From contig CALXUG010000030.1 in NCBI GenBank assembly GCA_944391625.1, forward strand, positions 1 to 37,601: a stretch of DNA of 37,601 nt. Reading direction: 5' to 3'. This document shows positions 5,380-37,601 of the stretch, piece by piece. The position numbers and the translations under genes were made by a program. This DNA is from an uncultured Clostridia bacterium (GTDB lineage Bacteria > Bacillota > Peptococcia > Peptococcales > Peptococcaceae). The notes beneath the pieces were generated by a model. It worked only from the letters and a program-made list of their open reading frames with translations, was not told the origin of the DNA and did no database searches. Positions within the stretch are counted from its first letter, which is position 1. Each line of letters starts with the position of its first letter.

Positions 5380-6144
5380 TCATTCTTCTGCAACATCCGG
5401 CGCTTCCAGCTTATTGGCAGCTAAAACAGCAGCCTGCTCTGCCCGTTCTTCTTCGCTGAGATAGGGTTTCATTTTGTTGCGAATATCCTGCATTTTTTCA
5501 TCCAGCAAAGCGGCCAAATCGGCGCACTGATTTAACCCAATCAATACCTGGCGCGGCACAACCTTACCCTGTTTGTAATACAGTTTATGCTCCAGACTGG
5601 CCCAGAAATCCATGGCGATGGTGCGAATCTGCACCTCTATGGTTACATTTTCTGTTTTGTCAGTCAGAAAAACCGGCACATTTACCAGCAAATGCAGACT
5701 GCGGTATCCATTGTCCTTGGGATTTTTGATATAGTCCTTCACCTGCTTAATTTCCAGGTCACTCTGGCTGGCCAGTTTGTCATAAATTTCGTAAATATCT
5801 TCTACAAAAGAACATACCACCCGAATACCGCCAATATCATGCAAATTTTCCCGAGCGCTTTGCGCAGACACCGGATAGCCTTGCCGAATCAATTTTTCAA
5901 TGGTCTTTTTGGGATTTTTGATGCGGGTTTCAATATGCTCAATGGGGTTATAATCATGCAGAAAATCATATTCTTCATTGAGAATGTTCAGCTTGGTAAC
6001 AATCTCATCCAAACCAAATTTATGCACCACAAACAAATACCGCCACTCGTTCAGCTCTCTGATTTCATCCACATCAATCAGTTCGCGCAGAGAATCTACT
6101 TCACTCAAAAAACTTCCGTTACTGTTATCAATTACTACCGACAT
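5380..6144 (-). CDS. Small alarmone synthetase, RelA/SpoT-domain (p)ppGpp synthetase
   Basis: A 254-residue single-domain (p)ppGpp synthetase of the RelQ/YjbM type; there is no HD hydrolase domain and no TGS/ACT region. Family motifs are clear: the basic segment RIKNPKKTIEK (74-84), HDIGGIRVV (102-110), NGYRSLH (145-151) and EVQIRT (170-175). It transfers pyrophosphate from ATP to GDP or GTP, making the stringent-response alarmone in the cytoplasm. The ATG at 6144 is preferred over an upstream GTG because AAGGAG is eight bases before it, whereas the GTG overlaps that site. About 35 residues longer at the C-terminus than YjbM, with an acidic, alanine-rich tail. It is divergent from rqcH and upstream of yqzL-recO, with 180 bases between, so it may or may not share a transcript with them. 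Confidence 0.92.
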   Translation of the reverse strand: MSVVIDNSNGSFLSEVDSLRELIDVDEIRELNEWRYLFVVHKFGLDEIVTKLNILNEEYDFLHDYNPIEHIETRIKNPKKTIEKLIRQGYPVSAQSARENLHDIGGIRVVCSFVEDIYEIYDKLASQSDLEIKQVKDYIKNPKDNGYRSLHLLVNVPVFLTDKTENVTIEVQIRTIAMDFWASLEHKLYYKQGKVVPRQVLIGLNQCADLAALLDEKMQDIRNKMKPYLSEEERAEQAAVLAANKLEAPDVAEE

Positions 6145-8257: not shown

Positions 8258-8273
8258 TGTTTCACGTGAAACA
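8258..8273. promoter_or_regulatory. parS: parS centromere-like site (ParB/Spo0J binding)
   Basis: The 16-bp palindrome TGTTTCACGTGAAACA matches the bacterial chromosomal parS consensus TGTTNCACGTGAAACA exactly. ParB binds such sites, spreads as a CTP-dependent clamp and loads SMC-condensin; the sites usually lie in the origin-proximal part of the chromosome. It sits in a 412-bp intergenic stretch between the terminators of rqcH and the EFR1 gene, outside any coding region. No parA or parB lies in the window. Confidence 0.93.
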
Positions 8274-8277
8274 TCCA

Positions 8278-8300
8278 TGTTAGCCGCAAATCGGCTAACA
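8278..8300. repeat. Hairpin adjacent to parS
   Basis: A perfect 9-bp stem (TGTTAGCCG, 8278-8286, with 8292-8300) and 5-base loop begins four bases after parS. No T-run follows directly, so it is not an obvious terminator. Its role is unknown. Nothing else is recognisable in the surrounding intergenic stretch (8056-8467) apart from this, parS and the two terminators. Confidence 0.6.
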
Positions 8301-8355
8301 CAAATAGGTAATGAAAAAATTTTACGCTTTTTTACACACGAAACATTTGTAAAAT

Positions 8356-12075: not shown

Positions 12076-13224
12076 TTATTCCACCTCCTGCACAGTCTGC
12101 ACCGTTTCTTCCAGCACAGCAATTTCGGTATCAGTCATTGTGCCGCCGGTCACCTGACCGTAAAAGTCGGCAAATAACTGTCCCGGCGTCTGCTTTTGCA
12201 AGTCAATGCGCTTATATTGCTGCATGGTTTCTGCCTGCAGCTGATGCTCCCGCTCCAGTGTTAAGGCATTGGGATATTTCTCCCGCAGCCGCGCCATGGG
12301 CTCCAACAGTTCGCCGTAGTCGGTGAGAACGGCGCGGATAAAATCCTGACTGTTGGCAGACTGCACCACATCTTCCTGCAGCAAGTCGGTCAAATTGCCT
12401 CGAATGGTGCGCATGTCCCGCAGCGGCGTCAACGGCAGTTGGGTAACAGTTACACCGCCGTCCTCAGCCAAATCCACCTGCAAGATGCCTTTCCGGTGCC
12501 GCTCCTCAGAAAAAGAATATTTCAGCGGAGAACCGGCGTAACGGATGCAATCTGTTCCTGAACGCTGACAGCTGTGCAGATGGCCCAATGCTACATAGCA
12601 AAATCCACTAAGCAAACTGCTGCTCCAAAACTCAGTGCCGCCAATGGTCAGTTCCCGCTCCGAATCGCTATATTCCAGTTCCTCGCTGCCAGCCACCACG
12701 CCATGGGCCAGCAGCACATGCCGCTGCCCATCTTCCAGATTGATGGTCTGCAGCACCTGTTCCATAGCCTGCTGATAATCCAGGGCTTCTTCGGTCTGCA
12801 ATTCATACCGCAGTGTAGCCAAATCTCCATAGGACAACAAATGAAAGATCACCGGCCCCCATGCATCCTGCAAAGTCACGCTAGGCACAGGCAGATGCAG
12901 CCGTCCCGCTATATGCAGCCCTGCCCGGGACAAAATATGATGGGCAAACCCCAGCCGTTCGCCGCTGTCATGGTTACCGCTGATGGCCAGCACCGGAACA
13001 CGGCACTCCAGCACCACCCGGGACAAAAATACATCCAGCAGCTGTACCGCCTCTACCGACGGATTGCGGCGGTCATAAATGTCCCCGGCCAGCAGCAGCA
13101 CATCGGGCTGCTGCTGATTGATGAGCGTTATGGTCTGCTCCAACATGTATTGCTGGTCCTCCAATAGAGAAACCTGATTTAACTTTTTGCCGATATGCAA
13201 ATCGGCCATATGAAACATTCGCAT
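12076..13224 (-). CDS. sbcD: Exonuclease SbcD, Mre11-like nuclease subunit
   Basis: A 382-residue calcineurin-like phosphodiesterase of the Mre11/SbcD family. Metal-binding motifs are D8-x-H10 (MADLHIGKK), GDIYDRRNPS (47-56), GNHDSGERLG (83-92), then LLAHG and ALGHLHS further on. The C-terminus carries the SbcC-binding region. It is the Mn2+-dependent nuclease half of the SbcCD complex. The ATG at 13224 is chosen: AGGAGG lies before it, overlapping the stop codon of the DUF445 gene, and the protein then begins exactly as the family does. The frame stays open for about 94 codons upstream, but that stretch lies within the DUF445 gene and is unlike SbcD. Confidence 0.96.
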   Translation of the reverse strand: MRMFHMADLHIGKKLNQVSLLEDQQYMLEQTITLINQQQPDVLLLAGDIYDRRNPSVEAVQLLDVFLSRVVLECRVPVLAISGNHDSGERLGFAHHILSRAGLHIAGRLHLPVPSVTLQDAWGPVIFHLLSYGDLATLRYELQTEEALDYQQAMEQVLQTINLEDGQRHVLLAHGVVAGSEELEYSDSERELTIGGTEFWSSSLLSGFCYVALGHLHSCQRSGTDCIRYAGSPLKYSFSEERHRKGILQVDLAEDGGVTVTQLPLTPLRDMRTIRGNLTDLLQEDVVQSANSQDFIRAVLTDYGELLEPMARLREKYPNALTLEREHQLQAETMQQYKRIDLQKQTPGQLFADFYGQVTGGTMTDTEIAVLEETVQTVQEVE

Positions 13225-35213: not shown

Positions 35214-35224
35214 ATCTGCATTAT

Positions 35225-35340
35225 GATTCTTCTTCCATCCAGACTATACTGTCGGTATCGGAATTACACCGATTCAACCCCAAAAGGCTCGCGGACTGTC
35301 ACCGCCGGTAGGGAATTGCACCCTGCCCCGAAGATTCTTG
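35225..35340 (-). promoter_or_regulatory. FMN riboswitch (RFN element)
   Basis: Conserved RFN segments occur in order on the minus strand: CTTCGGGGCAGGGTG, CCGGCGGT, AGTCCGCGAGC, TCGGTGTAATTCCG, CCGACAGT, AGTCTGGATGGAAGAAGA. These form the six-helix FMN aptamer. It controls ribU: FMN binding favours the terminator downstream and reduces riboflavin uptake. Confidence 0.97.
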
Positions 35341-35349
35341 CTTGCGTTT

Positions 35350-35378
35350 ATCATACTACAATTCAGGGCAGTTGTAAA
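35350..35378 (-). promoter_or_regulatory. Promoter of the ribU leader
   Basis: On the minus strand TTTACA (35378-35373) and TATGAT (35355-35350) are separated by 17 bp. The transcript would start about ten bases before the RFN element. Confidence 0.75.
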
Positions 35379-35783
35379 TATACTTTTTTTCATATTTTAG
35401 AAATCAATATCCTCTAAGGCTTGGAAAAACTACTATGGTTTTTCCTATCAGGATCTCGGCTGAAACAGTCTGACTGGCAGAGTGGTTATGTGGATAACTT
35501 TCAACAGTCTGTCATATTCCAATTGCTCTTGCACTATGGTTTTACAGCTGCGGGGCGCAGCCTCCCCCTCCTCTTTTTTATTTAACTCAGTATAACTTCT
35601 CTCAGTCTTATTACATTGTACTTTCTTCACTTCTGGAGTTGTACTTTTTACATGTCACCATACATAATGATTCCATGGTTTATTCCTGGCTATCTGCGAC
35701 AGTCATATCAACTAAAAAGTAAAGGATACGCTTGATAAAAAGCATCTTCTTTTTCTGCCTTATAAGTTTTATTTAGTGCGAAT
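35379..35783. other. Gene-free stretch upstream of the ribU leader
   Basis: No convincing gene. The longest reading frame, about 60 codons on the minus strand, has no family resemblance and no good ribosome site. An 8-bp A/T-rich hairpin (35423-35430 with 35438-35445) has no T-run, and GCTGC/GCAGC near 35550 is followed by a pyrimidine-rich run. A single perfect DnaA-box sequence (TGTGGATAA, 35489-35497) occurs but is alone. Confidence 0.6.
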
Positions 35784-35933
35784 CAGGGCAGAATTGCCTT
35801 TGCCTTTTCCTCCGTAGTCTGGACAGCGGCTGGTCTGTTCCTCTCGGCCGGACAGAGCTGTCCGCCTCGATGGGAACAGCCTGCGCCCCGGTCCATCCTA
35901 AGTCGGAAGGCGTGCAAAGGCAATTCTGCCCTG
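35784..35933. repeat. 150-bp inverted-repeat element (structured RNA or MITE-like)
   Basis: The ends are perfect 20-bp inverted repeats (CAGGGCAGAATTGCCTTTGC at 35784-35803; its complement at 35914-35933). The interior continues the symmetry: CTGTTCC with GGAACAG, TGGAC with GTCCA, and an apical CGGACA-gagc-TGTCCG hairpin, so the whole unit can fold into one rod. It is much more G+C-rich than its flanks. The plus strand ends in GCTTTTCTT, like a terminator. I see no reading frame and no target-site duplication. It could be a small RNA gene, a MITE or a palindromic repeat; I do not recognise the family. Confidence 0.7.
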
Positions 35934-35964
35934 CTTTTCTTAGTAAACTATCGTTCTAATACAA

Positions 35965-36000
35965 AAACAGCCTTTGGCGCATGGAAACCAAAGACTGTTT
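35965..36000 (-). terminator. Terminator of the exported protein gene
   Basis: Arms AAACAG-c-CTTTGG (35965-35977) and CCAAAG-a-CTGTTT (35988-36000) pair with one mismatch. On the minus strand it is followed by TTTTTG, starting about 45 bases after the stop of the gene at 36045. Confidence 0.85.
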
Positions 36001-36044: not shown

Positions 36045-36461
36045 CTAGTTGTATTGACTTTCATCGCCAAAAATACTTGGGATGTTATCTATTTTTTCAA
36101 ACTTTGCTGTCATATCCGAAACGGTGAGTTGAAACCCATTGTCCTGATAACCAATTACCTGATCCTTTATCAGCGCCCTGCTTTGGTCATGATCACATAC
36201 AAGTTCATATTGGTTATCTGATATCGGCTGCACTGTACCCCTGATATACACATCTTTACTCTGATCGGTATAAAAGAAACTGTTATCTTTTACAGTATCG
36301 ACTGAAAAATAAATGCTGTACGGACCCTGGCCCGCTGCATAGGTGCCGTGAAAATCGGCAGAAAGCTTGTCACCACTGAAAAATGTCACAAATAAAATCA
36401 GTGCCAGCACTGCCGCAACGCCAATGAACGGAATCGCTTTTTTGCGCAAATTCTGTTCCAT
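36045..36461 (-). CDS. Membrane-anchored or exported hypothetical protein
   Basis: A 138-residue protein of no recognised family. A basic start (MEQNLRKK) and one hydrophobic segment (IPFIGVAAVLALILFVTFF, about 10-28) make an N-terminal anchor or signal. There is no lipobox cysteine. The rest is a hydrophilic, beta-rich domain (FHGTYAAGQGPYSIYFSVD) placed outside the membrane. An AGGGGG ribosome site lies about nine bases before the ATG. It is probably a single-gene transcript closed by a clear terminator. It is more A/T-rich than the housekeeping block. Confidence 0.75.
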   Translation of the reverse strand: MEQNLRKKAIPFIGVAAVLALILFVTFFSGDKLSADFHGTYAAGQGPYSIYFSVDTVKDNSFFYTDQSKDVYIRGTVQPISDNQYELVCDHDQSRALIKDQVIGYQDNGFQLTVSDMTAKFEKIDNIPSIFGDESQYN

Positions 36462-37402: not shown

Positions 37403-37500
37403 GCAACACCTCGTTTCAACTTCACAATCATATAATTTAATCTTAGCAAAGTTCGTAATGCAATGCAACTATAGTGTGAAAAATTGCGTGATCGGCTTGT

Positions 37501-37561
37501 CCTATCTTTGCCTATCTCTTGTTGAAGCAAGTGTGCGGTCGGCTGCCTATCTTTGCCTATC
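37501..37561. repeat. Direct repeat at the window edge
   Basis: CCTATCTTTGCCTATC occurs twice (37501-37516 and 37546-37561), exactly 45 bases apart. Each copy is itself an internal repeat of CCTATC and is preceded by a CGGCT. A hairpin (CCCGAC/GTCGGG, 37572-37577 with 37587-37592) follows. The window ends here, so the full extent is unknown. Confidence 0.6.
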
Positions 37562-37601
37562 CTTCAGTTTACCCGACCAGAAAAGCGTCGGGCAGCGGAC
37601 A

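What the first reader, a model, noticed from the sequence alone, without database searches (positions are those of the whole stretch)
35784..35933. Rod-like 150-bp inverted-repeat element in accessory DNA
Perfect 20-bp terminal inverted repeats enclose an interior that also pairs, giving one long hairpin of unusual G+C richness with a T-rich 3' end on the plus strand. It matches none of the RNA families I can recall. It may be a small regulatory RNA, a MITE or a recombination site.
Basis: seen in the sequence. Interest (0 to 1): 0.6.

Follow-up and report, generated by a model that had tools for sequence, protein, structure and literature searches.

The report
Genus-wide family of dispersed hairpin repeats
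The 150-base hairpin is real and is one of roughly 100 scattered copies of a repeat, found only in this bacterial genus, whose folded shape is kept by matched mutations although its sequence drifts; this copy sits beside the decayed remains of a plasmid-type replication gene.

Summary
Confirmed and extended. Window 35784-35933 is a strong hairpin (perfect 20-bp arms; -89 kcal/mol, z -7.7). It is not a lone palindrome. A covariance model from six close copies finds 94 places in the same genome. A second model built from 36 diverse copies finds 8-67 copies in each of the 8 held genomes of the genus (67 is a scoring cap) and none in 38 other genomes of its class or 144 others across the phylum. 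On the window's minus strand the fold carries massive covariation (37 of 43 pairs with double changes; 0 of 500 shuffles reach it), conserved tandem G.A mismatches and a GNA triloop. That strand folds more stably in 81 of 86 copies, so the folded strand is what selection sees. Rfam has no match. The window copy belongs to a 6-member subfamily, five of which lie beside RepA_N replication genes; in the window only a repA fragment remains 74 bp away. Best reading: a non-autonomous, MITE/REPIN-like structured repeat, brought here with a RepA_N unit. It is not a REPIN as defined: there is no Y1/RAYT transposase in this genome. The mobilising enzyme and any transcription are unknown. About 30 copies in this genome belong to two-hairpin units carrying exact parS sites.

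The parts
35783..35935 (-). Rod-like hairpin element; sense (structure-conserved) strand is minus
   Evidence: R2 covariance-model hit, 128.8 bits, E 2e-31, minus strand only; fold
35784..35803 (+). Left arm of the perfect 20-bp inverted repeat
35914..35933 (+). Right arm of the perfect 20-bp inverted repeat
35903..35904 (-). First GA of the conserved tandem G.A internal loop (minus-strand reading CCGAC)
   Evidence: GA/GA in 22 of 36 diverse copies; position
35811..35812 (-). Second GA of the same tandem G.A internal loop (minus-strand reading CGGAGG)
35475..35710 (-). Decayed fragment of a RepA_N/DUF6017 replication initiator gene (roughly codons 198-299 of the relative on contig C1)
   Evidence: 80-91% DNA identity to intact repA copies; 73% protein identity over aa 240-291; family from Pfam
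35223..35339 (-). FMN riboswitch of the flanking host gene (landmark of the host locus, not part of the element)
   Evidence: Rfam RF00050, 120.8 bits
34428..35117 (-). ECF transporter substrate-binding gene, probably ribU (landmark)
   Evidence: PF12822, E 1e-32; locus conserved in 6 genus relatives
35965..36000 (-). Terminator-like hairpin between the next gene (36045-36461, minus) and the element
   Evidence: consensus scan only

Best explanation
The element is one member of a genus-restricted family of dispersed, non-coding, ~150-nt palindromic repeats that behave as non-autonomous mobile or hitchhiking DNA. Shown: many copies, subfamily bursts, a conserved fold on one strand kept by compensatory change, largely extragenic positions, frequent inverted pairs, and co-occurrence of the window subfamily with RepA_N units. 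Inferred: the folded single strand (as ssDNA during replication or repair, or as RNA) is the form recognised by a trans-acting cell or element protein that spreads or maintains the repeats, comparable to REPIN/RAYT; the window copy arrived as the upstream part of a RepA_N replication unit whose repA gene has since decayed. The protein that recognises the hairpin is not identified.
For: Copies: 5 other near copies at 80-94% identity by blastn; 94 distinct places with model R1; R2 gives 67 (scoring cap)/55/44/29/15/13/11/8 copies in the 8 genus genomes and 0 in 38 class genomes and 0 of 148 non-self genomes sampled across the phylum, 4 of which are among those 38. Fold conserved while sequence changes: 84.5% of cells paired, 37 of 43 pairs doubly changed, covariation 0.503 against 0.209 shuffled (0/500) and at most 0.16 when slid. 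Strand: minus strand more stable in 81 of 86 copies, mean 8.4 kcal/mol; G.U 73 against A.C 33; GA/GA in 22/36 and a GNA loop in 54 of 87 folds. Outer arms vary between subfamilies (about 0.49 column identity against 0.68 in the core) yet pair. Recent amplification: subfamilies of ~30 and ~20 copies and a near-identical tandem triplet on C46. RepA link. The window locus lacks the insert in six relatives that keep the ribU/FMN region.
Against: No Y1/RAYT transposase in this genome or in six of its seven genus relatives. No target-site duplication or clean empty site was established. At least one copy is shared at an orthologous place in two species (L138/L189, 85% identity over 1.66 kb including the hairpin), so some copies are old and inherited, as a functional element would be. 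Conserved internal loops could instead mean a cellular RNA function.
Confidence: 0.6

Rival explanations
1. A family of structured non-coding RNAs (trans-acting or mRNA-end elements) transcribed from the sense strand, spread by duplication and kept for function.
For: Strand-specific stability, G.U over A.C, tandem G.A loops and GNA caps are typical of selected RNA; very strong covariation; one orthologous copy in two species.
Against: Neighbouring-gene orientation looks random: downstream gene same strand 14, opposite 26. The window copy lies behind a terminator-like site with no promoter signal. Head-to-head inverted pairs put the two sense strands on opposite strands. DNA hairpins also tolerate G.A and GNA motifs.
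Confidence: 0.22
2. A replication or control site of RepA_N elements (origin, single-strand origin or antisense-control region) that spread with them.
For: 5 of 6 window-type copies lie by a repA, about 190-260 bp upstream of it in the ancestral arrangement of the four intact ones, and a sixth repA (C67) keeps the end of one arm.
Against: About 90 other copies in the genome are not next to repA; repA on C28 lacks the hairpin; only 1 of the 7 genus relatives has any RepA_N hit, a weak one, although all 7 have the hairpins; orientation relative to repA is not constant.
Confidence: 0.1
3. Classical MITE: internal deletion derivative of an IS with fixed terminal repeats, moved by that IS's transposase.
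For: Size below 200 bp, long inverted arms, extragenic dispersal, as for Correia, ERIC and RUP elements (PMC2229807).
Against: Terminal sequences are the least conserved part between subfamilies; no parent IS with the same ends was met; no target duplication seen. An IS110 gene lies near one copy only.
Confidence: 0.07
4. Incidental palindrome.
For: None beyond the single-copy view inside the window.
Against: Multicopy family with covariation across 8 species.
Confidence: 0.01

Closest known systems
REPINs / REP doublets (BIMEs) with RAYT transposases (PMC3116915, PMC2817692)
   Same: Extragenic, high copy, palindromic, compensatory changes reported in the hairpin, often organised as inverted pairs, within-genome subfamilies
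   Different: Unit here is one ~150-nt rod rather than two 20-40-bp REPs; no Y1/RAYT gene in this genome; the conserved part is the centre of the rod, not its REP-like ends
ERIC / Correia (NEMIS) / RUP / RPE small mobile repeats (PMC2229807)
   Same: 105-155 bp, long stem-loop, extragenic, clade-restricted, no protein coded in most
   Different: Those have fixed terminal repeats, often with TA target duplications; here terminal arms differ between subfamilies and are only required to pair; no duplication found
Stem-loop sequence families of bacterial genomes (PMC1590033, PMC2267715)
   Different: This family is not tied to those lists by any test made here; only their abstracts were seen
Integron attC sites
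   Same: Long imperfect palindromes with variable sequence and conserved fold, recognised as a folded single strand (own knowledge)
   Different: Copies are mostly scattered singles or inverted pairs, not cassette arrays; the attC end motifs were not searched for

Membership tests
REPIN / RAYT system | REP-associated Y1 (HUH) transposase in the genome | tested here: not met
   PF01797: 0 hits in the own genome and in six of seven genus relatives; own genome 96% complete
REPIN / RAYT system | Palindromic repeats in inverted pairs | tested here: met
   Inverted neighbours 7-155 nt apart in four species
REPIN / RAYT system | Two conserved 20-40-nt REPs at the ends of the hairpin | tested here: not met
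   Arms are less conserved than the core
MITE (ERIC/Correia/RUP type) | Fixed terminal inverted repeats shared by all copies | tested here: not met
   Arms vary between subfamilies; column identity about 0.49 in arms and 0.68 in core
MITE (ERIC/Correia/RUP type) | Target-site duplication | tested here: inconclusive
   Flanks listed for 87 copies show no constant duplication by eye; no clean empty site was found
MITE (ERIC/Correia/RUP type) | Below 200 bp, extragenic, multicopy | tested here: met
   140-161 nt apart from one truncated 112-nt copy, 94 places, mostly between ORFs
Known structured RNA family (Rfam 15) | Match above gathering score | tested here: not met
   None for the window or for 8 loci covering other copies
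RepA_N replicon component | Always linked to repA | tested here: not met
   Linked in 5 of 6 window-type copies only
Integron attC site | Conserved R and L box end motifs and cassette arrays | not tested
   Only the scattered distribution was seen

The most novel reading that the evidence does not exclude
A genus-specific mobile system in which a ~150-nt single-strand hairpin with conserved tandem G.A loops and a GNA cap is the recognition unit of an unidentified, non-RAYT protein. Different hairpin subfamilies would be carried by different units: RepA_N genes, two-hairpin elements that sow functional parS sites over the chromosome, and solo copies.
Probability: 0.25. Interest if true: 0.75.

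Novelty: new variant of a known kind. Interest (0 to 1): 0.55.

Why it matters
Most bacterial palindromic repeats are known in Proteobacteria and are tied to RAYTs or IS elements. A large structure-selected family without a Y1 enzyme, with strand-specific non-canonical motifs, points to a different recognition machinery. In one species the repeats also carry dozens of exact parS sites away from the parAB cluster, which makes it testable how a chromosome copes with scattered ParB-loading sites.

Tried and rejected
An exact 18-mer of the arm in 85,000 species genomes gave 13 hits in unrelated taxa, about the number expected by chance, and was discarded. BLAST of the element against plasmids and phages: no match. 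IMG/VR exact scans for two other subfamilies: none. RAYT link tested and rejected. 'parS and hairpin spread together genus-wide' looked attractive because both are enriched only in this genus. But in other species only 2 of 20 fetched parS sites have a hairpin hit nearby, one of them partial and weak, so the physical link holds in this genome only: 13 of 15 sampled parS sites. A kink-turn reading of the G.A motif was dropped because the loop is symmetric and lacks the 3-nt bulge. An empty-site test at the window locus failed because the far flank differs in relatives. Names of the G genomes are not available, so the organism is not stated.

Full report
Observation. Its 20-bp arms are perfect, the whole folds as one rod at -89 kcal/mol with z -7.7, and it is G+C-rich in an A+T-rich intergenic stretch. 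No Rfam family matches.

Copies in the genome. A DNA search of the window's own genome (2.97 Mb in 74 contigs) finds five further close copies, one of them partial; 59 relatives give none by blastn. A covariance model from the six copies (A1, R1) finds 94 distinct places (count). These are not merely any long hairpins: they are 140-161 nt long apart from one truncated 112-nt copy, share core motifs, and fall into subfamilies of about 30 and 20 copies plus singletons. A second model (R2) from 36 diverse copies of 8 species scores the window copy at 128.8 bits on the minus strand, with no plus-strand hit listed even at E 1.

Distribution. A phylum-wide draw of 149 genomes gives hits in the window's own genome only; four of its other genomes were already in the class set, so 144 are new. 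The family is therefore genus-restricted within what is held.

Structure under selection. On alignment A2 (36 sequences, mean column identity 54%) the fixed structure has 84.5% paired cells, 37 of 43 pairs with changes on both sides, and a covariation score of 0.503 against 0.209 in shuffles (0 of 500) and at most 0.16 when slid. The structure was derived from the same alignment, so the slid control is partly favourable by construction, but the number of double changes is not explained by that. The tool also warns that relatedness can inflate the shuffle control.

Strand. The reverse complement (window minus strand) folds more stably in 81 of 86 copies, by 8.4 kcal/mol on average; one copy is tied. 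On that strand G.U cells outnumber A.C cells 73 to 33, one column pair is a U.G wobble in 23 of 35 sequences, a tandem GA/GA internal loop is kept in 22 of 36, and the cap is a GNA triloop in 54 of 87 folds. This says that the folded minus strand is what matters; it does not tell RNA from ssDNA.

Anatomy against MITEs and REPINs. The terminal arms are the least conserved part between subfamilies but still pair. A transposase-recognised terminal repeat would give the opposite pattern. Inverted pairs of hairpins occur in four species, as in REP doublets (PMC3116915), but the Y1 transposase that defines the REPIN system is absent from this genome. Known small mobile repeats such as ERIC, Correia, RUP and RPE are the nearest kind by size and habit (PMC2229807).

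The window copy. It belongs to a six-member subfamily. Four others lie next to intact RepA_N/DUF6017 genes, and a sixth repA copy (C67) keeps the end of one arm. In the window a repA fragment at 35475-35710 lies 74 bp from the hairpin. The neighbouring ribU gene with its FMN riboswitch is conserved in six genus relatives at 69-76% DNA identity; the match stops near 35359, and the fragment and hairpin are absent there. The simplest history is arrival of a repA-hairpin unit followed by decay of repA (inference).

Spread and age. Near-identical arrays (C46) and large subfamilies in one species show recent amplification. One copy shared with its 1.5-kb flank between two species at 85% identity shows that others are inherited.

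Mechanism, graded. Shown: a multicopy, genus-restricted repeat with a selected fold on one strand. Likely: non-autonomous dispersal, partly as a passenger of other units. Unknown: the enzyme, transcription, and any benefit to the host. In 44 contexts the orientation of neighbouring genes looks random, which speaks against a cis-acting leader role. The ORF calls used there were mechanical.

Limits. The genomes are draft assemblies and repeats break contigs, so copy numbers are lower bounds. The paper library holds only open-access text, so an earlier description elsewhere cannot be excluded.

Noticed in passing
whole genome G000; e.g. L158:5000-13500, L143-L157: 69 exact parS sites (TGTTTCACGTGAAACA) in this genome and 3-33 in the seven genus relatives, against 0-2 in 32 other genomes. 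In this genome 13 of 15 sampled sites lie within about 350 bp of a hairpin copy; in other species only 2 of 20 do, one of them weakly.
   Followed up: partly
L158:9594-9926 and about 30 similar loci: Two-hairpin units (inverted b and d hairpins) bounded by parS or parS-like palindromes; one lies inside the parA/parB region between two exact parS sites.
   Followed up: partly
L158:5240-5270, 5487-5510, 13010-13035: Some parS sites sit inside longer palindromes followed by T runs, as if built into terminators.
   Followed up: no
window 8258-8319: An exact parS with a short palindrome, 98% identical over 62 bp to L028:8053-8114; no hairpin copy next to it.
   Followed up: no
window 37474-37601: The contig ends in two partial copies of the b-type arm (GGCTTGTCCTATCTTTGCC); contig breaks probably lie in these repeats.
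   Followed up: no
G000: C1:94355, C28:11572, C20:1025, C45:9727, C2:134329, C67:3846: Six full or nearly full chromosomal copies of a RepA_N/DUF6017 replication initiator at 81-92% identity plus fragments, unusual for a plasmid-type gene.
   Followed up: partly
L027:8788-13189: Two window-type hairpins in opposite orientation bracket a gene for a 1146-aa von Willebrand A-domain protein.
   Followed up: no
L028:8372-9610: IS110-family transposase gene lying between repA and its hairpin.
   Followed up: no
L101:301-1136: Three hairpins at exact 194-nt spacing, ending beside a tmRNA gene.
   Followed up: no
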